Part shown: piece by piece, positions 8,481 through 52,011 of the stretch
How positions within the stretch are numbered: the stretch's first letter is position 1
Layout: each line of letters starts with the position of its first letter
From: a virus
Length of the DNA stretch: 54,704 nt
Reading direction: 5' to 3' (one strand)
IMG/VR virus record: IMGVR_UViG_3300030105_002351
Location: 1-54,704 of that record
The notes under the pieces: model-generated
Databases searched by the model: none
The model's input: the letters and a program-made list of their open reading frames with translations, nothing else
What the model was told of the DNA's origin: nothing
Translations under genes and position numbers: made by a program

Positions 8481-9509
8481 TTAAGACTCCTTTAATAATT
8501 GATTTGCATACATTTCAGGACTTATGCCAAGTTGTCGAGCTATTTTAACTTGAGTCTGATTTATACGAATTTGCGTGGGTTTTTTATTTCCGCTATCCCT
8601 CGATGCGGATGCAACAACTGTTGAAGGTTGTCGTTTTGGTGTTGTATACCCTTGTGAAGATTCTGCTTCATTTACAGGTTGTACACCGAAAAAGTTAGGA
8701 AATTGACCTTTCATTGCTGAATCAACTTCTTTGTAATATTGTTGTGATTTACTAGCTGGGTCTACTCCCTTTGCCTGTAGAGATTGATCTACATACATTG
8801 CAAAAGATGTCATTTCCTTATGTGCTGGATCAGTTCCCATAAACCAAGGATTCCTTGATGACCATGCTTGCATATCTGGATCAAGCTGTGGTTTCTGTGG
8901 CTGAATAGGCTGCACAGGCATTTTATTAACAACTTCTTGTTGTACATTTGCTGCCATTGAAGAAGATTGTTGTTCTGCAAGCGTTGCTCTTGATAACAAC
9001 TCTTGTGCTTTTGACATTTCATCAGCATTGCCTTCTTCGTATGCTTTTTTGAAAGAATCTTGAGCGTTTTGTTTTGCCCATAAAGCGTTGTTATATGCTT
9101 GTTTATTTAATACTTCACCGCCTTGTTCAACCATAGCTTGCAGCTTTTGGTTTTCAGACATTACAGTTTGTAATCTTGTAATTGCTTCTTTGGATTCTCT
9201 TGCAGCAGCTTCTTTAGCTCTGCGTTCTTCATGATACTCGTATTTAATTTTTGCTATTCTATCAGCAGCTCGCTTCGAGTAATTTTCTATTTCTTTGTCT
9301 ACTGTTTCATCATCGACTTCAGGCGAAGCATCTTCTGCTTTTGCAGGTCTACGATCAGCTTCAGGTGTGTCATCAACTACTTCTACCTCAAGACCTTCTG
9401 GAATTTTATTGTCAATTTCTACTGACTTACCAAAAAATTTGTCTTCTGTAGTTTGTTGTTTTGTTTCTTGAACAACTGGTTCTTCATTTATAATTTCTGT
9501 TTTACTCAT
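8481..9509 (-). CDS. Capsid scaffolding protein
   Basis: A 342-residue acidic, Gln/Glu/Ala-rich protein with long predicted coiled-coil segments (residues about 80-190, including RAADRIAKIKYEYHEERRA) and no hydrophobic core pattern. It ends with a basic, helix-forming segment (TQVKIARQLGISPEMYANQL) typical of the capsid-binding end of scaffold proteins. It lies between portal and capsid genes, the usual scaffold position. The start overlaps the upstream GroES-like gene by 4 bases. The scaffold assignment comes from composition, coiled coil and synteny. Confidence 0.7.
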   Translation of the reverse strand: MSKTEIINEEPVVQETKQQTTEDKFFGKSVEIDNKIPEGLEVEVVDDTPEADRRPAKAEDASPEVDDETVDKEIENYSKRAADRIAKIKYEYHEERRAKEAAARESKEAITRLQTVMSENQKLQAMVEQGGEVLNKQAYNNALWAKQNAQDSFKKAYEEGNADEMSKAQELLSRATLAEQQSSSMAANVQQEVVNKMPVQPIQPQKPQLDPDMQAWSSRNPWFMGTDPAHKEMTSFAMYVDQSLQAKGVDPASKSQQYYKEVDSAMKGQFPNFFGVQPVNEAESSQGYTTPKRQPSTVVASASRDSGNKKPTQIRINQTQVKIARQLGISPEMYANQLLKES

Positions 9510-9907
9510 GCTCTCACCACTCCTGTAGGATCACTAACAACTGCTTCGACAGTATCGTCATTTATTAACCGAAACTCTTGTCCATACATTTTCATGCGAG
9601 TGCCTGAATAAGCTCTAAATACAACCCAATCTCCTTTTTTACACCAAGGACCATTTGGGAATCTATTACTATCTTGATAACACTCTGTACCTAGTTTTAA
9701 AACATAACCGCAAATATTACTGACTTCTTCATCTTTTACAGTTGAAGTTGCTTTGATGATGCCACCTTCAGTTTTTGTATCTGTTTTAGGCATAGCTATT
9801 AAAATCTTCCAGCCTTTAGGTTGAGGCAGTTGATTTTTAGCTTCATCGGTTAATTTAGGTATTTTTACGTTATCAATCTTATGTTTAGTAATGATTTTTG
9901 TATCCAT
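9506..9907 (-). CDS. GroES-like co-chaperonin
   Basis: A 133-residue protein whose core follows the Cpn10 layout: PKGWKILIAMPKTDTKTEGG (N-terminal strand and mobile-loop area), the strand VSNICGYVLKLGTEC, WCKKGDWVVFRAYSGTRMKM, and a final strand FRLINDDTVEAVV. GroES homologues form a lid on GroEL; phage versions, like T4 gp31, help fold the capsid protein, and this gene sits in the capsid-assembly cluster. The frame extends upstream to a TTG at 9964, overlapping the next gene. I prefer the ATG at 9907 (MDTKIITKHKIDN), though neither has a good ribosome-binding site. Confidence 0.7.
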   Translation of the reverse strand: MDTKIITKHKIDNVKIPKLTDEAKNQLPQPKGWKILIAMPKTDTKTEGGIIKATSTVKDEEVSNICGYVLKLGTECYQDSNRFPNGPWCKKGDWVVFRAYSGTRMKMYGQEFRLINDDTVEAVVSDPTGVVRA

Positions 9908-9938
9908 ATATATTTGCACGACTTTAGGAGTCGAGTTC

Positions 9939-10142
9939 CTATTTTTCCAAGTTCCTTTGAACAAAATCCAAAAGTTCTCGTTCTGCGAGGGCTAATCCCT
10001 CTATAATACCAGCCATTTTTTGATACTCGGAGAAGTCTTTACAAGCTCCTGTACTCATATGGTCAGCGTGATCGTTCATAAAAGTCCGAAGCTTTATTTT
10101 CATATGCTCGGATAATGATAGTTCTGTGCTAGCAATGTTCAT
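9939..10142 (-). CDS. Small conserved helical protein, unknown function
   Basis: A 67-residue acidic, helical protein with the segment MKIKLRTFMNDHADHMSTGA followed by CKDFSEYQKMAGIIEGLAL. Short proteins with this motif recur in marine phage head modules between portal and GroES-like genes. There is no membrane segment. It lies 33 bases downstream of the portal gene in the late operon. Function unknown. Confidence 0.5.
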   Translation of the reverse strand: MNIASTELSLSEHMKIKLRTFMNDHADHMSTGACKDFSEYQKMAGIIEGLALAERELLDFVQRNLEK

Positions 10143-44370: not shown

Positions 44371-46235
44371 TATCTTCTTCCATCTTGTTTTATGTCTAGC
44401 CTTATATCTCCTAGTCTCCATCCAAAACTACTAGAATCGCTTGATATTCTTACCGCAGCTTGTCTGCTTCTGGCTCTAGTGTTTACAAATGTAGAAGATG
44501 GGGTAACATTTATAGTTTGTAATGTAGACAAATCTTGCAAAGGATAGTCTCTACCTTTTATTGTAAATGTAACAGTATCTGAAGTTGTTTGCTGATCTCT
44601 AAATTGTATATCTGGTATTAACTTTGATATAAAAATAAATCCTTCTCCATCTGGATTTAGATCAAAGTCACTTGATTCTATAAATGAAGTAAATGTATCT
44701 GTTCCATCACCATGACCAACTTCATGCCTATAAATATAATTTAAATTAGTTGTATCATTTTTGCTAGTTGCAAGTGGCTTTTCAAATATATTAGCTTCGT
44801 TCCAAGCTGTTCTAACAAAGTTATCTGCTGTTGTACCTATCGACCATGTGTCTTCTAAATAATTAAATAAAACATACTTGTCTATTTCTATGCTTGTACC
44901 TGAAGGATAAAACCACATAATTTCATTTACACTTTCATTGGCAGCTGCAAATACTTTAAATGCTTGATCTTGGTTTAGGTCTGAAAAAACATAGTCTAAT
45001 ACTGCACATGGAAGTCTTTCCGCAGTTCCAGCATAAACAAAGAATCCATCTCTATCCATAAAATAGACTCTATTGTTTGCATTAACAGCTGCATTTGGAG
45101 CTATTAAAGATGGTCCTTCTGCTACTTCTGTAAATGAAAAAACAAAAGGCTCACCTACAAAACGCATTGATACTATTCCTGCATCAGTCCATATAAGAAT
45201 TTCTTGTCTTGTTTTTAATGCAGAAATAATTGTAGAACCTAAAGAAAGCTGTACACCACCAGCTTGGTTTGTTGCGGTTGGAGTCCAATCAATAGCACTT
45301 TCTGTATCTGAAAATCTTACTAACAATGGGTCTATAACTGAAGAACCTATAGAATTGCAGCCAAAAGCAATAACGTGCTTGTCTACATCTGACATCATAA
45401 TTTGTAATACTGCGGTTGGCACATCACTTGCATTTGATTCTGCGGATAACAAAGTTGATCTAGTAGATGCACCGCTAGATTTATCCCAAAAGAATATTTC
45501 TGATGCTCTTGGTGCTGCTATTATATCATCGCCAAAATTATCTATTGACCAAGTTCTAAGTTGATTAATTACTGATAAATCGGTGGTTGATCCAAATCCT
45601 CCATCTCCCCAAGAATTGATACCCCAACCTGTTCCTCTAACATAAACATCTAAACCAGTATTAATTTGATAAACACCATCTACTCCTGAACCACCATTAC
45701 CTGTATCAGAGCCATTTGCAACTATAGCATCTCCAGAAGTATCTTTAGCATTGAAGGTGTATGTATCTATTCCTGTAACTGTTTCTATTTGATATTCTTG
45801 ATTAAGAACAGCAGCAGTAATTGTTCCACCTAAAGTAGCTGCACCTGCTATAGTTACAAAGTCTCCAGAAACGCAACCATGATCATCATCTGTAGCTGTA
45901 ATTAAACTAGACCCACTTGTAGCAGCAAACAATATTCCATTTGTAGTTGTTGCTCTTATAGGTGTAATATCGCTTATTGTATTTCCAAGAATCACATAAA
46001 GTTTTTGATGTGTTCCAAGTATTGTAATATTGTCTCCGTTAATAGCTTTATATGTATGTATTTTTCTTGCTGTACCAACAAAGCTAGTTTCAATGAATTT
46101 ACTCCATCCACCAAATCTTTCTGGTCTGCCTTTTCGGAATCTTACTTTGTCTGCATCAAACCAACCACCTTCGTTGCTATAGTTAGTACCTTCTCGGTTT
46201 ATACCTGGCTTGAATATATATTTACTTAGTGCCAT
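44370..46235 (-). CDS. Tail hub / packaged-DNA stabilisation protein (P22 gp10-like)
   Basis: A 621-residue beta-rich protein starting MALSKYIFKPGINREGTNYS and continuing NEGGWFDADKVRFRKGRPER, the opening typical of a large family of podovirus tail-hub or gp10-like proteins. The body holds many beta repeats, including VYFMDRDGFFVYAG and LPCAVLDYVFSDLN, consistent with a propeller-like fold. It would cap the portal and adaptor and hold the packaged DNA. Late operon position fits. Family assignment is by eye. Confidence 0.6.
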   Translation of the reverse strand: MALSKYIFKPGINREGTNYSNEGGWFDADKVRFRKGRPERFGGWSKFIETSFVGTARKIHTYKAINGDNITILGTHQKLYVILGNTISDITPIRATTTNGILFAATSGSSLITATDDDHGCVSGDFVTIAGAATLGGTITAAVLNQEYQIETVTGIDTYTFNAKDTSGDAIVANGSDTGNGGSGVDGVYQINTGLDVYVRGTGWGINSWGDGGFGSTTDLSVINQLRTWSIDNFGDDIIAAPRASEIFFWDKSSGASTRSTLLSAESNASDVPTAVLQIMMSDVDKHVIAFGCNSIGSSVIDPLLVRFSDTESAIDWTPTATNQAGGVQLSLGSTIISALKTRQEILIWTDAGIVSMRFVGEPFVFSFTEVAEGPSLIAPNAAVNANNRVYFMDRDGFFVYAGTAERLPCAVLDYVFSDLNQDQAFKVFAAANESVNEIMWFYPSGTSIEIDKYVLFNYLEDTWSIGTTADNFVRTAWNEANIFEKPLATSKNDTTNLNYIYRHEVGHGDGTDTFTSFIESSDFDLNPDGEGFIFISKLIPDIQFRDQQTTSDTVTFTIKGRDYPLQDLSTLQTINVTPSSTFVNTRARSRQAAVRISSDSSSFGWRLGDIRLDIKQDGRR

Positions 46236-46245
46236 AAATTAAACC

Positions 46246-46617
46246 TCATTGGTCATCGCTTGTAGTAACTGTTCTATAATAAACTACAACTTCTTTTAAT
46301 TCATTTATATATCTTTTAAGCTCTTGCATATTATATGCCATTAATTCGTAATCAGGCACTGACATAGCAAAAAATACTAATTGCCCTTGATCTTTTTTTA
46401 TTCTAGCTAAAAATTTATCAATGTTCTTATCAGATACTACATACCAATAAGGTTCTTTTAAATCTATTTCTCTTGGTAAAATTGGTTGAGCTATAGTTCT
46501 TTCTATAGGTTTAGACTTAATATTAATCGTCTTGCTGTTTGGTATCAGACTGCAACTGCAAACCATCATCGAGATTATCAATACTACGACTAGCTTTTTC
46601 GATGCTTTCAAATACAT
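46246..46617 (-). CDS. Outer-membrane spanin lipoprotein (Rz1-like)
   Basis: A 123-residue lipoprotein. A signal sequence (MYLKASKKLVVVLIISMMVC) ends in a lipobox with the acylated Cys probably at residue 22 (VCSC). The mature part starts SLIPNSKTINIKSKPIERTI and is charged and helical. AAAGGAA precedes the start. It overlaps the Rz-like gene by 95 bases in another frame, the classical embedded or overlapping spanin arrangement. The pair would bridge inner and outer membranes and fuse them at lysis. It is longer than most Rz1 proteins. Confidence 0.7.
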   Translation of the reverse strand: MYLKASKKLVVVLIISMMVCSCSLIPNSKTINIKSKPIERTIAQPILPREIDLKEPYWYVVSDKNIDKFLARIKKDQGQLVFFAMSVPDYELMAYNMQELKRYINELKEVVVYYRTVTTSDDQ

Positions 46618-46930
46618 TTTTTGTTCCTTTATTTACTTTTATTTCTAATAAATCTGGTTTAGCAGCCGCTAACTTTGTTAAATCGTGTCTTTTAAATATA
46701 TCAAGATAACGATTCATTTCTGATTCTATTTTTTGATTTTTAGATTGTATCTCTAATAATCCTTTAGCTTGCGAAGCAAAATCATTTTGCAAGGTAGTTA
46801 TAGTTTCTTTTTGAGTTTCTACTGCACCTTCAAGAACTTGATTGTTAGACTTCAATGTAATATTTTCATTGTACAACCAGTAAGAACCTAATCCTAAAAC
46901 TATAATAATACCTATTAAAATTTGGTTCAT
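46523..46930 (-). CDS. Inner-membrane spanin (Rz-like)
   Basis: A 135-residue protein with one N-terminal membrane anchor (ILIGIIIVLGLGSYWLY, residues 4-20) followed by a periplasmic coiled coil (VLEGAVETQKETITTLQNDF, then EIQSKNQKIESEMNRYLDI). That is the architecture of i-spanins. The partner lipoprotein gene overlaps its end. It lies between the cyclase gene and the tail hub gene. No endolysin is recognised nearby. Confidence 0.7.
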   Translation of the reverse strand: MNQILIGIIIVLGLGSYWLYNENITLKSNNQVLEGAVETQKETITTLQNDFASQAKGLLEIQSKNQKIESEMNRYLDIFKRHDLTKLAAAKPDLLEIKVNKGTKNVFESIEKASRSIDNLDDGLQLQSDTKQQDD

Positions 46931-46944
46931 AATAAATTCTCTAT

Positions 46945-48714
46945 CTAATTATTCTTATAAGTATATATTTCAAGTGCTTTTGTTTTTCCTTTAACTTTAA
47001 TAGATTCTAATTTCTTTAGCTTATAACCACTTGCTTCCTTAGTTGATTTTCCTATTAGTAGATTAACATTCCTATCTTTTGTAGCACTTTCTAATCTTGC
47101 TGCTGTATTAACTGCATCTCCAATAGCAGTGTAATCAAACCTAGATTCTGAACCCATGTTACCTATTACAGCTATTCCTGTGTTTATTCCAATACCTATT
47201 GCAATAGGAGGTAGGTCTTCTTTTTGTAATTCTACATTTAAAGATTTCATGTTTCTTATAATGTCTAACGAGCAATCAATAGCTATTTTTGGATGATCTG
47301 ATAAATCTAATGGTGCATTGAATATAGCCATCATTGCATCACCAATGTATTTATCTACCATTCCTCCATGTTTTTGTACCGCTGATTGCTGTGCAGTTAA
47401 AGCTTTGTTCATAATGTAAGTTACTTTTTCTGGTGGAAGCAACTCAGACATAGAAGTAAAACCTCTAACATCTGTAAATAAGAATGTTGCTTCTCTTTTT
47501 TCTCCACCCAGTTTTAATAACTCTGGATTTTTTTGTAATCTTTTTACTTGTCTTGGGTCTAAGTAATGTTCAAATTGTTTTTTAATTTGCAGTCTAAGTT
47601 TGAACTGCTCTCTAAATCTAAGATAAAAAGCTACTGAAGCAACAATAAACTGTGACAATAGCGACCAACTAACATCTATAAGAATACCTTGTTGTATTAA
47701 ATAATAACCACCAAAAGCAGTTAATAAAAATAATATACTGGTAAATAATATTCCGCTGCTTATTCCAAATACAATAATAAAAATCCAAGTTAATATTATT
47801 GTTGTAAAAATTATTAATATTTCCGCAGCCAAGGCCCAATCTGGTATATAGGGGCTATCTTGTATTAATATAGATTCTGCTAGTGCAGCTTGTATTTTGT
47901 GAGGCTCAAGCAATCCTTCTGGAGTGGCTATTTGTGGCATAACTCCATTTGCAGTTATTCCTACAAAAACATATTTATTTTCAACATTCATTTCTGCAAG
48001 TGTAGTTTCTGGGGTGTCTATCCAGCTTATCCACTTTCTACCCATACTATCTGTTTTTACAGGTGGTATTCCTTTTATGGCTACTTCTTCAATACCATTG
48101 TCATTTGTTTTTATAATATATGTTCTTGTTGATGTAAGAGCTTTTAGAACTTGAGTTCCAAATGAAGCTATCCATCCATCAGGGGTTCTTACTAATAATG
48201 GTATTCTTCTTACTAATTGATCTATTTCAGTTGGTGCAATAGCTAATCCTTGTAATGCACTTTCTGATAAAGGCTGTATGTTTTGTTTAACTCCAGCAGA
48301 TAATATGCCACCAACATTATTACCTTTTATAACTGTTCCTGTTGTTTTTGGATAACTGCCTTTTCCATCTTGGAACATTGCAATAACTGAATTGCTATTT
48401 TTAAGTGATTCAGAAAAAAACTGATCTCCATTCATTCTGTCTGCTTGCGGAAAAGATATAACCCATCCAACCCCTAATGCCCCTTTTTCCATAAGACTAT
48501 TGTTTATATCACCTAGTCTTTTTCTTGGAAAAGGATAACCGCCTTCATTTTCTACGTCTTGCTCTGTAATGTTTAGAATTACAAAGTTTCCTGAAGGTTG
48601 TTGTTTTTTTACAAAAGCATCAAATGTTTTTAGCTTTAAAATTTCTGTAGGAGTTGATTGATATATAACAGGCAACATCAGAATTGTAAGTATTATAAAT
48701 ATTAATTTTTTCAT
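46945..48714 (-). CDS. CHASE2-domain class III adenylate cyclase
   Basis: A 589-residue membrane enzyme. After an N-terminal hydrophobic segment (1-20) comes a periplasmic CHASE2 sensor domain (about 25-275; FVILNITEQDVENEGGYPFP). Three membrane helices follow (about 285-360). The catalytic domain spans about 395-589: FTDVRGFT near residue 411 and GDAMMAIF near 457 bind metals, VDKYIGDA supplies the Lys and FDYTAIGD the Asp that select adenine, and GDAVNTAARLES the catalytic Asn and Arg. All key residues for making cAMP are present. Its start overlaps the FecR-like gene by one base. Cyclases are very unusual in phages. Confidence 0.88.
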   Translation of the reverse strand: MKKLIFIILTILMLPVIYQSTPTEILKLKTFDAFVKKQQPSGNFVILNITEQDVENEGGYPFPRKRLGDINNSLMEKGALGVGWVISFPQADRMNGDQFFSESLKNSNSVIAMFQDGKGSYPKTTGTVIKGNNVGGILSAGVKQNIQPLSESALQGLAIAPTEIDQLVRRIPLLVRTPDGWIASFGTQVLKALTSTRTYIIKTNDNGIEEVAIKGIPPVKTDSMGRKWISWIDTPETTLAEMNVENKYVFVGITANGVMPQIATPEGLLEPHKIQAALAESILIQDSPYIPDWALAAEILIIFTTIILTWIFIIVFGISSGILFTSILFLLTAFGGYYLIQQGILIDVSWSLLSQFIVASVAFYLRFREQFKLRLQIKKQFEHYLDPRQVKRLQKNPELLKLGGEKREATFLFTDVRGFTSMSELLPPEKVTYIMNKALTAQQSAVQKHGGMVDKYIGDAMMAIFNAPLDLSDHPKIAIDCSLDIIRNMKSLNVELQKEDLPPIAIGIGINTGIAVIGNMGSESRFDYTAIGDAVNTAARLESATKDRNVNLLIGKSTKEASGYKLKKLESIKVKGKTKALEIYTYKNN

Positions 48715-49829
48715 TAATCGCTTTGTGTAATAGTTATGTAAGAACTACTACCTCCATTTACTTTAACAATATTGCTTACACCATCTTGATTAAAAACTAC
48801 TGTATAAGCTTCGCTGCCATCTAAGTCTACTTGCAGATATTCATTTACTGCTCGTCTAAGGCTAACAACATTTCCTGATATAATTGTAGTTATTTGCGTA
48901 TCTGGGTCTTTACCTAACAAAGTTCCTGATACTTGGTTACTTATAGACTGAGACAAACGATCTTCTTCATTAAGTATAGCTAATGCGTCTATTACATTAA
49001 GCAGGTCTTCTAAAAAATTTACATCTAAATAATTTATATCTAATTCTGTAAATTCAAGATCATCTTCTTTAAGAAAATCTTCAGCTAAGTAATCAATGTC
49101 TAATCCATTAAAATCTAATATAGATTCTTTTTTTGTTACTACCCTTTCTTGTATTACTTTTTGTTTTTTTGGTGGAGTAACAATCAACATATTATCAATT
49201 ATATCTAAAGTTAAATTTAGTATAACTGGTTTAGATGGCTTAGATTCAAATACACTAACAGTAGTAGCCTGGTAAGGCTTGTTTAATAAAACTGTACCCA
49301 TTGCAGTAACAACTTCTATTTCTCCACTAGAAAGACCAGAAGCATCAGGTAACAGTATTATTAATGATCTACCTAACTCGTCTACTGTTGCTGTAAAATC
49401 AGTACCTCTAATTGCTATATTAGCTGTTGGTGTTTTTAAACTAATATTTTTTTTATCTATTTTGTTTAAGTTTCCAGTAATAAATCTAGCTGTACCTAAA
49501 CCAAAAGTAAGAGCCATTTTAGATTTACTTGGATTAGGATCATATATATATTCATCAATAGTTAATTGTGAATGTTCAGTAAGACTTACTTTGCTGTCAT
49601 CTAAAAATGTAATAGACATTCTTCCGTTTGCAGTAACAACTGCGTCATTACTTTGTATAGATAAGTTTAGTTTGGCATTTAAAGGTTCATCTCTTACTAT
49701 TTGTGCAGAACCATTTAATTCAGATATGCCTCCTATTTCAGCATCCGATTGAGGTTCCTTGATCGTTTTGGATAACACAAACTGAGGAAGAAGCATTGCC
49801 ACCAACAGAAATAATTTTAAGCCAATCAT
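48714..49829 (-). CDS. Secreted FecR-domain protein
   Basis: A 371-residue protein with a signal peptide (residues 1-20, MIGLKLFLLVAMLLPQFVLS) and a FecR domain (about 60-170): NAVVTA-type strand, RMSITFLDDSKVSLTEHSQL, then TIDEYIYDP, KTPTANIAIRGTDFTATVDE. In bacteria FecR domains bind envelope partners in signalling, and secreted FecR proteins often sit beside CHASE2 cyclases. The C-terminal half is acidic with short repeated phrases (LDINYLDVNFLEDLLN). Its signal peptide is encoded inside the end of the gene before it (92-base overlap). Periplasmic role inferred. Confidence 0.75.
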   Translation of the reverse strand: MIGLKLFLLVAMLLPQFVLSKTIKEPQSDAEIGGISELNGSAQIVRDEPLNAKLNLSIQSNDAVVTANGRMSITFLDDSKVSLTEHSQLTIDEYIYDPNPSKSKMALTFGLGTARFITGNLNKIDKKNISLKTPTANIAIRGTDFTATVDELGRSLIILLPDASGLSSGEIEVVTAMGTVLLNKPYQATTVSVFESKPSKPVILNLTLDIIDNMLIVTPPKKQKVIQERVVTKKESILDFNGLDIDYLAEDFLKEDDLEFTELDINYLDVNFLEDLLNVIDALAILNEEDRLSQSISNQVSGTLLGKDPDTQITTIISGNVVSLRRAVNEYLQVDLDGSEAYTVVFNQDGVSNIVKVNGGSSSYITITQSD

Positions 49830-50469
49830 TATCTTGTGTACTCAGTTGTTTAATATTAAATGTTCTTTGTCCACCTGTATGATCTAAATAAAAGTACCCA
49901 CCAGATGAAGCAGATACGCCAGTACCTGTGTAGCTTATTGTGTTATCAGAACCATCTATATCCATAAAGTTTGTAGCACTATCTATATTTATATTAGATG
50001 TTACAGTGTTGTTTGAACCTTGAAAAATCCAATCTAAATTTAAGCTTGTTGCTAAAGCTGATGTTCCTTGGTTTAAAGTAAACGTGTTTCCTGCTCCAGT
50101 AACAGCTATATTGTGATCAGAACTGTCTGAACTATATGTGTTTGTAGGGTCTACTTGAATTGTAAACGCATTAGTTGAACCAGTAAAATTGTACAAACCA
50201 GTAAAATTATCAGACCAAATATCTCCTAAAAATTTATTAGTAGCTCCAATCATATTAACGTCTAATGTCATGCTTGTACCATCAAGATCAAAAGCTGTTA
50301 AACTTCCTGCCGAAGAACTTAATCCACCTATAATATTAGAAATACCTAACTGCTCTAAATCAATGTTAGCACCTGTACCTGACTGATCTACAAATATTTC
50401 ATTATCAGCCGCGTATACTTGTGCAATCATTATCATTGCAATTAGGTTTATCAATGTTAATTTTTTCAT
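49738..50469 (-). CDS. Secreted curlin-like repeat protein, candidate CsgG substrate
   Basis: A 243-residue secreted protein. The ATG at 50469 gives a clean signal peptide (MKKLTLINLIAMIMIAQVYA). The mature part has repeats of the kind G-x-x-N-x-a/i-x-x: GANIDLEQLGISNIIGG, GATNKFLG, GSTNAFTIQ, GAGNTFTLNQG, GSNNTVTSN and GSDNTISYTG, roughly every 20-25 residues, as in curlin and other beta-solenoid proteins. Two Cys near the end could form a disulfide. It directly follows csgG, so it is the likely substrate of that pore. Repeats are less regular than in CsgA, so identity as a true amyloid is unproven. Confidence 0.6.
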   Translation of the reverse strand: MKKLTLINLIAMIMIAQVYAADNEIFVDQSGTGANIDLEQLGISNIIGGLSSSAGSLTAFDLDGTSMTLDVNMIGATNKFLGDIWSDNFTGLYNFTGSTNAFTIQVDPTNTYSSDSSDHNIAVTGAGNTFTLNQGTSALATSLNLDWIFQGSNNTVTSNINIDSATNFMDIDGSDNTISYTGTGVSASSGGYFYLDHTGGQRTFNIKQLSTQDNDWLKIISVGGNASSSVCVIQNDQGTSIGC

Positions 50470-51277
50470 GACTCCAGTAACTCCTGTCATAACCAATATT
50501 AATTAATGTTAATACTGCACTTTCTATAGCTTTTGAAAGTGCTAAAGTTGTAGATTCGTTACGAGAATTACCTGATTCTATTTCAACCAGCTTTGTTCCC
50601 ATTTCAATAAATCTAAATACATCTTCTGATTTTCCATAACTAAATATAGTTTTTTCAGTCATTACTTCTATAAGTATTTCTCCTGTAGATACGGAAACCA
50701 TGCGTAAGGTTACTGTAACGCTATCCTCTCTATATTGAATACTAGAACCGATACCTAAATATCTAGCACCCATACCTCCTGTAGAAAGATTGCTTTCATA
50801 AGCAATAACAGCACCTTCGATTAAAACTCCTGCAAACAACAAAGGAGATAAAGTCTTTTTTTTATCTTCCTCAGTTCCTATTGTTTCTCTTGCTGATCTT
50901 ATTAATTGTCTTTCTTTTGTTAGATTGTCTAAACCAACTCTTTCAACAACTCTAAAAAATTCTCCATTTCCTGCGTGTTTCAAAGCTCTTATTAATAAAG
51001 CACCAGGTTGTTGAGTTATAGCTGTACTAAATAAAGCAAACTCACTATTACTTTTTCTTTGACCTGTTTGATCTAAAAATGAATTTGGATATACAGCTAC
51101 AATAGGTTTTTTTGTTGGTGTTTTTACATTTGCTAGTTCTTTAGATTGAAGTTTGGAAATATGTACAAAATTTTGTTCATTAAACTTTTTTTTATATATA
51201 TCTTCATATTGATCATATGTAGAACAACTAGAAAGTAAAAGTACCAATAGGAATCGTAATTTCAGTAAGTGTTCCAT
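50405..51277 (-). CDS. csgG: CsgG-like curli secretion pore lipoprotein
   Basis: A 290-residue lipoprotein with lipobox LSSC (Cys18). The body aligns with CsgG throughout: VAVYPNSFLDQTGQ, the segment GARYLGIGSSIQYREDSVTV, TLRMVSVSTGEILIEVMTEK, FSYGKSEDVFRFIE and VLTLINIGYDRSYW. CsgG forms a nonameric outer-membrane pore that exports curli subunits. By eye, the constriction loop keeps the Phe equivalent to F56 (LFST) but has other residues at Y51 and N55. It is encoded next to CsgF and a curlin-like protein. The start lies inside csgF (50-base overlap). Confidence 0.9.
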   Translation of the reverse strand: MEHLLKLRFLLVLLLSSCSTYDQYEDIYKKKFNEQNFVHISKLQSKELANVKTPTKKPIVAVYPNSFLDQTGQRKSNSEFALFSTAITQQPGALLIRALKHAGNGEFFRVVERVGLDNLTKERQLIRSARETIGTEEDKKKTLSPLLFAGVLIEGAVIAYESNLSTGGMGARYLGIGSSIQYREDSVTVTLRMVSVSTGEILIEVMTEKTIFSYGKSEDVFRFIEMGTKLVEIESGNSRNESTTLALSKAIESAVLTLINIGYDRSYWSHEKINIDKPNCNDNDCTSIRG

Positions 51278-51680
51278 CGCTTTCCGTTATATTAAGAGTT
51301 AGTGACGAGCCATCACTGTTATAGCTTATAATATTACCTTCAAGTTTTATTTCTCCTGAAGTTTGTGCTGTATCTCCAAATAAATTATTTACTAGCTGTC
51401 TTGAAAGTTCTGCATAAACTCTTGATTCAAGATTTCTCATAAACCTAGCAAGTGTAGTATTTTGGGCATCTCTTTTTATTTCGTCTTGTAGAGCTTTAAT
51501 TTCTTCTTTAACTGTTAGCTTTCTGGTGTGTTGTTGATTTTCAATAGTAAGATAATGACTAGATATTCCTGCACCATTAAAACTAGGAGATTTAAACTTA
51601 TGAACTATTTGATCTGCTGAAGAAGTTTGTATTATTAGTATTGCTAGAAAGTATAAATATTTAATCTTTTCTTTGATCAT
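51228..51680 (-). CDS. csgF: CsgF-like curli pore accessory protein
   Basis: A 150-residue secreted protein. The ATG at 51680 gives the signal peptide MIKEKIKYLYFLAILIIQTS. The mature N-terminus has the CsgF signature HKFKSPSFNGAGISSHYLT, matching the FRNPNFGG segment that inserts into the CsgG pore, then a helix (NTTLARFMRNLE-like TLARFMRNLESRVYAELSRQ) and a C-terminal beta part (LTLNITESDGTLTEITIPIG). CsgF narrows the pore and anchors the growing fibre at the surface. It partly overlaps the holin-like gene before it (20 bases). Confidence 0.82.
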   Translation of the reverse strand: MIKEKIKYLYFLAILIIQTSSADQIVHKFKSPSFNGAGISSHYLTIENQQHTRKLTVKEEIKALQDEIKRDAQNTTLARFMRNLESRVYAELSRQLVNNLFGDTAQTSGEIKLEGNIISYNSDGSSLTLNITESDGTLTEITIPIGTFTF

Positions 51681-52011
51681 CTCTATCTGCTTTTGCAATT
51701 TTATCTATATTAATAAGATTTGGAACTCCAAGTATTGTTTTAATCATAGTATCTTGTCTTATGATTTCGTTATCTAAACTACGAACTCTATCAATTAATG
51801 CTACTAAAATTCCATGCTGTGCATCTAATTTACTACCTAGTCTGTCTTCCATTGCTCTTATCTGTACTGCTACTTTTTCATCAAGAACATCAAGTTTAGT
51901 TTCCATGCCATCAATTATTCTATTGATAAGTTTCCATATAAAGAAACCTAATCCACCTGCTGCGGCTATAGGAAAACCAACTTCATTAATAAGGCTTACA
52001 GCATCTTCCAT
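51661..52011 (-). CDS. Holin-like membrane protein
   Basis: A 116-residue protein with one N-terminal hydrophobic segment (FPIAAAGGLGFFIWKLI, residues 13-29) and a long charged coiled-coil tail (METKLDVLDEKVAVQIRAME). This is the layout of one-helix phage holins of the BhlA type, although such proteins can have other roles. It lies between the nuclease and csgF genes in the late region, and its start overlaps the nuclease stop (TAATG). Lysis function is plausible because a spanin pair is encoded in the same operon. Confidence 0.5.
   Translation of the reverse strand: MEDAVSLINEVGFPIAAAGGLGFFIWKLINRIIDGMETKLDVLDEKVAVQIRAMEDRLGSKLDAQHGILVALIDRVRSLDNEIIRQDTMIKTILGVPNLINIDKIAKADRDDQRKD

What the first reader, a model, noticed from the sequence alone, without database searches (positions are those of the whole stretch)
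46945..51680. Phage-encoded curli-type secretion and cAMP signalling cluster
csgF, csgG, a secreted curlin-like protein, a FecR-domain protein and a CHASE2 adenylate cyclase lie in one tight operon beside the spanins. csgG/csgF have, as I recall, been noted in some marine phages, but I know of no description of the five-gene set. It could export a fibre or plug through the host outer membrane, while the cyclase senses the envelope and raises cAMP. Possible aims are superinfection exclusion, surface remodelling or lysis control.
Basis: partly seen in the sequence, partly recalled or inferred. Interest (0 to 1): 0.9.

Follow-up and report, generated by a model that had tools for sequence, protein, structure and literature searches.

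The report
Known phage curli-secretion gene cassette
A marine virus of bacteria carries a ready-made kit for pushing sticky protein fibres out of the infected cell plus an enzyme that makes a signal molecule; the kit is real and widespread, but it was already published in 2022, and what the signal does in a host that seems to lack any receptor for it is still open.

Summary
CsgF, CsgG, a curlin-like secreted protein, a FecR-domain protein and a CHASE2 class III cyclase lie on the minus strand of an HTVC023P-type podovirus, upstream of Rz/Rz1 spanins. Order is invariant wherever IMG/VR contigs are long enough (one myophage-type locus lacks AC); all genes are under purifying selection; cyclase catalytic residues are intact.

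It is not new. Wittmers et al. 2022 (PMC9599517) described CsgF-CsgG-CsgA/B-FecR-AC in HTVC023P-type podoviruses and pelagimyophages; CsgFG in these phages was known earlier.

Additions here: (1) one or two small TM/coiled-coil genes always precede csgF; they match the published "histidine kinase" in place and copy number but have no kinase domain. (2) In podoviruses the cassette sits directly before exchangeable lysis genes; in myophages it does not. (3) FecR and CHASE2 are a recurrent bacterial pair outside curli operons, and this FecR looks periplasmic, without a sigma-regulator part. (4) No canonical cAMP-binding domain in the phages tested, and only 2 of 60 genomes of the putative host family have one. 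Host regulation through CRP is therefore unlikely.

Best reading: late export of a surface amyloid with an envelope-sensing cyclase. Purpose unproven.

The parts
51661..52011 (-). TMcc: 116 aa, one N-terminal hydrophobic helix then coiled coil; first gene of the cassette (position and copy number match the published 'HK')
   Evidence: Upstream of csgF in 58/58, 71/72 and 31/31 loci with enough upstream DNA; found in the phage collection only in csg-bearing phages; no kinase domain in Pfam at E<=0.1 here or E<=1 in relatives; alignment A4
51228..51680 (-). CsgF: pore-lining/assembly factor with signal peptide and conserved F-x-S-P-x-F-x-G
   Evidence: PF10614 3.3e-17; motif in 78/78 viral CsgF
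50405..51277 (-). CsgG: outer-membrane lipoprotein secretion pore (LSSC lipobox)
   Evidence: PF03783 2.8e-50; profile matches solved CsgG 3x2r/4uv3 at 7e-66
49738..50469 (-). Curlin-like secreted repeat protein (export substrate); N-terminal signal peptide, all-beta
   Evidence: Homologue L162 (43% identity) passes PF07012 cut-off; AF2 all-beta pLDDT 80, pTM 0.77; no significant PDB fold match
48714..49829 (-). FecR-domain protein: signal peptide, FecR domain, unknown C-terminal region
   Evidence: PF04773 1e-9; only hydrophobic stretch is N-terminal
46945..48714 (-). CHASE2 sensor plus class III nucleotide cyclase, inner-membrane
   Evidence: PF05226 2e-26, PF00211 5e-21; D415, K455, D459, N536, R540 conserved; hydrophobic segments around 1-23 and 289-363
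46523..46930 (-). Rz-like inner-membrane spanin
   Evidence: phrog_739 4e-16
46246..46617 (-). Rz1-like outer-membrane spanin lipoprotein, overlapping Rz out of frame
   Evidence: phrog_812 2e-11; overlap from ORF coordinates

Best explanation
A phage-borne curli (type VIII) secretion cassette. During infection the phage makes CsgG lipoprotein pores in the outer membrane, lined by CsgF, which export the curlin-like repeat protein made by the next gene so that amyloid-like material forms on the infected cell (inferred from homology). The FecR-domain protein sits in the periplasm or is exported and works with the CHASE2 domain of the membrane cyclase as a signalling pair that reports the state of the envelope or of the export line by making a cyclic nucleotide; its target is unknown. 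In podoviruses the cassette lies directly before the lysis genes on the same strand, so it is probably expressed late. The likeliest benefit is an altered cell surface (blocking competing phages or aggregating cells); this last step is inference.
For: Shown: gene identities; strict co-conservation in podo- and myophages; purifying selection on all members, dN/dS 0.07-0.17 against close relatives, similar to the neighbouring structural gene at about 0.19; CsgF motif intact in 78/78; cyclase metal-binding D and R intact in 60/60, K in 59 and N in 58/60; curlin-type repeats in cassette homologues; FecR protein near CHASE2 in 8/17 alphaproteobacterial CHASE2 loci against 0/20 random regions, and a FecR/CHASE2-kinase operon controls biofilm in Burkholderia contaminans (PMC5192318); cassette followed by lysis genes in 46/46 podovirus loci. 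Wittmers et al. reached the same T8SS reading and report transcripts in metatranscriptomes (PMC9599517).
Against: No fibre has been seen: Buchholz et al. saw no clumping in Melnitz-infected cultures (PMC9004378). CsgE and CsgC homologues are absent according to Wittmers. The window's own curlin-like protein is too diverged for Pfam, and its model matches no solved curli structure. Late expression is inferred from gene position only; in myophages the cassette is not beside lysis genes (0/15).
Confidence: 0.6

Rival explanations
1. The CsgG/CsgF pore has been recruited as a lysis regulator (a gated outer-membrane pore or pinholin analogue), as Buchholz et al. proposed for Melnitz; the fibre protein is a plug rather than a fibre.
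For: In podoviruses the cassette lies immediately upstream of Rz/Rz1, holin and lysozyme genes in 46/46 loci; a TM/coiled-coil gene with weak holin-like PHROG matches precedes it. Proposal: PMC9004378.
Against: The neighbouring lysis genes differ between relatives (Rz/Rz1, 3TM holin, GH24, M15) while the cassette stays the same; myophages keep the cassette away from lysis genes; Buchholz et al. assumed csgA/B were absent, but the Melnitz and HTVC008M repeat proteins score above the Curlin_rpt cut-off. A FecR-cyclase pair has no obvious role in lysis.
Confidence: 0.18
2. The open CsgG pore serves import of nutrients or cofactors (iron, vitamins) into the infected cell.
For: Proposed in PMC7029224 and PMC9599517; CsgE gate reported missing.
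Against: Does not explain CsgF with its conserved pore-binding segment or the conserved secreted repeat protein under purifying selection. The FecR label gives no support for iron: this protein has only a signal peptide and no cytoplasmic sigma-regulator part.
Confidence: 0.07
3. The cyclase acts by raising cAMP to reprogramme host transcription through a CRP-type regulator.
For: Intact class III active site.
Against: No cNMP-binding domain in the window, in HTVC008M and 13 other csg phages or in 58/60 genomes of the putative host family; that family also has no class III cyclase or CsgG of its own, the only hits lying on phage contigs.
Confidence: 0.08
4. Assembly chimera or bacterial contamination.
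For: csg genes are bacterial in origin.
Against: Same block in many independent viral contigs and in cultured phages; flanks are phage genes on both sides.
Confidence: 0.01

Closest known systems
T8SS/curli module of HTVC023P-type pelagipodoviruses (Wittmers et al. 2022, PMC9599517)
   Same: CsgF, CsgG, curlin repeat, FecR, adenylate cyclase in the same order; one or two small genes before csgF; same virus lineage (TerL 52-59% identical).
   Different: They call the upstream gene(s) histidine kinase; the gene at that place here has no kinase domain. This genome lacks the second repeat gene. They do not mention the neighbouring lysis genes (no 'spanin' or 'holin' in the text).
Curli cluster of Pelagibacter phage HTVC008M and OM43 phage Melnitz
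   Same: Same gene order.
   Different: Myophages; CsgG 44-47% identical, cyclase 32-33%; a second repeat protein (PA14 plus curlin repeats in HTVC008M); not beside lysis genes.
Bacterial csg operons (alphaproteobacterial)
   Same: csgF-csgG next to curlin-repeat genes in the loci read.
   Different: No FecR or CHASE2 cyclase beside csgF in five alphaproteobacterial loci.
Bacterial FecR plus CHASE2 signalling pairs (e.g. Burkholderia BiofilmReg operon, PMC5192318)
   Same: Extracytoplasmic FecR protein encoded beside a CHASE2 membrane sensor; linked to biofilm.
   Different: No secretion pore; output there is a histidine kinase, here a cyclase.

Membership tests
Type VIII (curli) secretion system | CsgG pore lipoprotein | tested here: met
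   PF03783 2.8e-50; solved CsgG matched at 7e-66; lipobox
Type VIII (curli) secretion system | CsgF with N-terminal pore-binding segment | tested here: met
   PF10614 3e-17; F-x-[SN]-P-x-F-x-G in 78/78
Type VIII (curli) secretion system | Curlin-repeat substrate (CsgA/B) | tested here: inconclusive
   No Pfam hit in the window protein; homologues pass PF07012; repeat HMM built from bacterial curlins scores only 3.6 bits on it
Type VIII (curli) secretion system | Extracellular amyloid fibre | not testable with these tools
   Needs expression or infection experiment
Phage T8SS module of Wittmers et al. | Gene order CsgF-CsgG-curlin-FecR-(curlin)-AC in HTVC023P-type podovirus | tested here: met
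Phage T8SS module of Wittmers et al. | Preceded by a histidine kinase | tested here: not met
   Gene at that place is 116 aa (90-116 in relatives) with no kinase domain; their gene table could not be opened, so identity with their 'HK' is inferred
FecR anti-sigma/sigma regulator (FecIRA) | Cytoplasmic N-terminal domain, central TM, cognate ECF sigma | tested here: not met
   Starts with a signal peptide; FecR domain at residues 64-151; no other hydrophobic stretch; no sigma factor among the window proteins scanned
Class III adenylate cyclase | Two metal Asp, substrate Lys, transition-state Asn and Arg | tested here: met
   D415, D459, K455, N536, R540
Class III adenylate cyclase | Makes cAMP rather than cGMP | not testable with these tools
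   K455 with T/S at 529 is compatible with ATP use; needs enzyme assay

The most novel reading that the evidence does not exclude
The cassette joins two separate bacterial modules, a curli exporter and a FecR-CHASE2 sensor pair, into a virus-only circuit whose cyclic nucleotide acts through a receptor of an undescribed type in a host that has no canonical cAMP signalling.
Probability: 0.2. Interest if true: 0.75.

Novelty: new member of a known kind. Interest (0 to 1): 0.42.

Why it matters
Podoviruses and myoviruses of abundant ocean bacteria keep a five- to seven-gene cassette intact for a surface structure that their hosts do not otherwise have. Knowing what it does bears on how infection changes the surface and aggregation of SAR11-type cells. 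The sharpest open question raised here is the orphan second messenger: an apparently active cyclase in a phage-host pair without any known receptor.

Tried and rejected
(1) FecR C-terminus as a curlin repeat: the eye sees Q-D-G-x-S-N...I-T-Q, but a curlin-repeat HMM scores it no better than shuffles (median 0 bits; shuffled 95th percentile 2.2); dropped. (2) Fold model of FecR: pLDDT 37, unusable. (3) PDB fold search with the curlin-like model: best E 0.42, not significant. (4) Profile search of the curlin-like family against PDB sequences: nothing; CsgF alone against PDB: nothing. (5) Genome-collection scan for bacterial csgG with the viral profile: seven of eight hits carry phage-type cassettes (in MAGs named Rhodobacteraceae, Flavobacteriaceae, Maricaulis, Neomarinimicrobiota and Pelagibacter), one is bacterial. 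(6) Promoter and terminator scan: promoter-like sites fewer than in shuffles, terminators not informative. (7) No megablast relative of the window's right half in the phage collection.

Full report
What is there. The minus strand from 52011 to 46246 carries, in order of transcription: a 116-aa protein with one N-terminal hydrophobic helix and a coiled coil (TMcc, 52011-51661); CsgF (51680-51228); CsgG (51277-50405); a secreted curlin-like protein (50469-49738); a FecR-domain protein (49829-48714); a CHASE2 plus class III cyclase (48714-46945); and an Rz/Rz1 spanin pair (46930-46523 and 46617-46246). Neighbouring cassette genes overlap by about 1 to 92 bases. The stabilisation-type structural gene follows at 46235. 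Flanks on both sides are phage genes, and the terminase is 52-59% identical to those of HTVC023P, HTVC027P, 023Pt_psg01 and DSL-LC04, so the contig is an HTVC023P-type podovirus.

Is it real and conserved. Scans of IMG/VR seeded with this CsgG, with HTVC008M CsgG and with the cyclase gave about 240 loci. Wherever the contig is long enough, the order TMcc-CsgF-CsgG-curlin-FecR-(second repeat or other small gene)-cyclase holds: csgF before csgG in 72/72, 76/76 and 36/36 loci; curlin after it in 73/73, 55/56 and 43/43; FecR in 62/62, 35/35 and 43/43; cyclase in 38/38, 15/16 and 30/30; cyclase always with FecR before it (57/57, 28/28, 37/37). One myophage-type locus, L231, has no cyclase in the DNA held; the podophage contig L091, from a MAG, also lacks it. 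Nearly identical blocks come from other samples, which excludes a chimera. dN/dS against the closest relatives (L003-L005) is 0.07-0.17 for CsgF, CsgG, curlin, FecR and cyclase, against about 0.19 for the structural neighbour: every gene is being kept.

Are the parts functional-looking. The CsgG profile matches the solved E. coli pore over its length. CsgF keeps F-x-[SN]-P-x-F-x-G, which by my reading of the solved CsgG:CsgF complexes lies in the segment that lines the pore, in 78/78 sequences. The cyclase keeps both metal aspartates and the arginine in 60/60, the lysine in 59 (one ambiguous residue), and the asparagine in 58/60, with Ser in the two Melnitz-type sequences. The curlin-like protein is the weakest assignment: no Pfam hit itself, but homologues pass the Curlin_rpt cut-off (L162, 43% identical; Melnitz), its family's invariant columns include Q-x-G-x-x-N, and AlphaFold2 gives an all-beta model (pLDDT 80, pTM 0.77) that matches no solved structure significantly.

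What is already published. HTVC008M and Melnitz carry the cluster. Zaragoza-Solas et al. 2020 (PMC7029224) reported csgF/csgG in pelagimyophages and proposed 'sibling capture'. Buchholz et al. 2022 (PMC9004378) proposed a lysis pore in Melnitz and took csgA/B to be absent; here the Melnitz repeat proteins pass the Curlin_rpt cut-off. Wittmers et al. 2022 (PMC9599517) described the whole set including FecR and adenylate cyclase in HTVC023P-type podoviruses and in myophages, with superinfection defence, aggregation and import as hypotheses. The finding's claim of an undescribed five-gene set is therefore wrong. I found no experimental test in the open library.

What this work adds. First, TMcc. 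Wittmers et al. [quoted passage not shown] In the loci here csgF is preceded by one or two proteins of 90-116 aa with a single TM helix and a coiled coil, far too short for a kinase and without any kinase domain. They are probably the same genes; I could not open their gene table, so this is an inference. Second, genome position. In podoviruses the cyclase is followed within 1.2 kb by lysis genes in 46/46 loci of the podovirus CsgG set, but which ones varies: Rz/Rz1 with or without GH24 lysozyme, 3TM holin plus GH24, or holin plus M15 peptidase. In myophages this is 0/15. So the cassette is probably co-expressed with lysis in podoviruses, but lysis control is not its common function. Third, FecR. 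The protein has a signal peptide and a FecR domain and no cytoplasmic part, so it does not look like the iron-citrate regulator. FecR proteins lie within the 7-11.5 kb read around CHASE2 genes in 8 of 17 alphaproteobacterial loci and in 2 of 2 loci of the SAR11-like family, against 0 of 20 random regions and 0 of 5 csgF loci (the CHASE2 loci were chosen mostly from the best-scoring ones, not a random draw). A FecR/CHASE2-kinase operon controls biofilm in Burkholderia. The phage module therefore looks like a curli exporter joined to a pre-existing envelope-sensing pair. Fourth, the orphan messenger. cNMP-binding domains are absent from the window, from HTVC008M and 13 other csg phages (most of these records are fragments), and from 58 of 60 genomes of the family that includes the Pelagibacter MAG G001. 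The same genomes have no class III cyclase or CsgG except on two phage contigs. Genome names are hidden, so calling the family SAR11 rests on the MAG's title and the genome sizes of 0.8-1.6 Mb.

Mechanism. Shown: gene identities, conservation, selection, intact catalytic residues. Inferred: CsgG/CsgF export the curlin-like protein, which forms surface material; FecR and CHASE2 sense envelope or export state; the cyclase makes a cyclic nucleotide with an unknown target; expression is late in podoviruses. Benefit to the phage (superinfection exclusion, aggregation) is a guess shared with the literature. A lysis role remains the main rival.

Verdict. Real, conserved and functional-looking, but a new member of a published module. 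Interest is moderate, mainly for the orphan cyclase and the corrected anatomy.

Noticed in passing
L087, L089, L090, L091, L092, L094 (genome contigs): Phage-type curli cassettes sit in MAG contigs labelled Rhodobacteraceae, Flavobacteriaceae, Maricaulis, Neomarinimicrobiota and Pelagibacter; these look like mis-binned phage contigs and could seed false curli annotations in those taxa.
   Followed up: partly
L160 5034-9916 and L161 4969-10984: Two genomes of the SAR11-like family carry a CHASE2 gene near a FecR-domain gene; in L160 the CHASE2 protein ends in a SpoIIE phosphatase domain, a different output for the same sensor pair.
   Followed up: partly
L082 10638-11960: The second repeat protein of HTVC008M combines a PA14 domain with curlin repeats, suggesting a sugar-binding or adhesive fibre subunit.
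   Followed up: no
window 9509-9964: Protein matching the phage GroES co-chaperonin PHROG (1.8e-16).
   Followed up: no
window 46235-46246: In this genome and a few relatives no lysozyme gene lies between Rz1 and the structural gene, unlike most relatives; the endolysin was not found among the proteins scanned.
   Followed up: partly
OR851715.1 (hit H3): A 1499-base record labelled Salmonella phage encodes CsgG; possibly bacterial csgG DNA mislabelled as phage.
   Followed up: no
L070 11335-13154: The cyclase reading frame is interrupted (real or an assembly error) and its catalytic half resembles the HTVC008M type, hinting at recombination between podo- and myophage cassettes.
   Followed up: no
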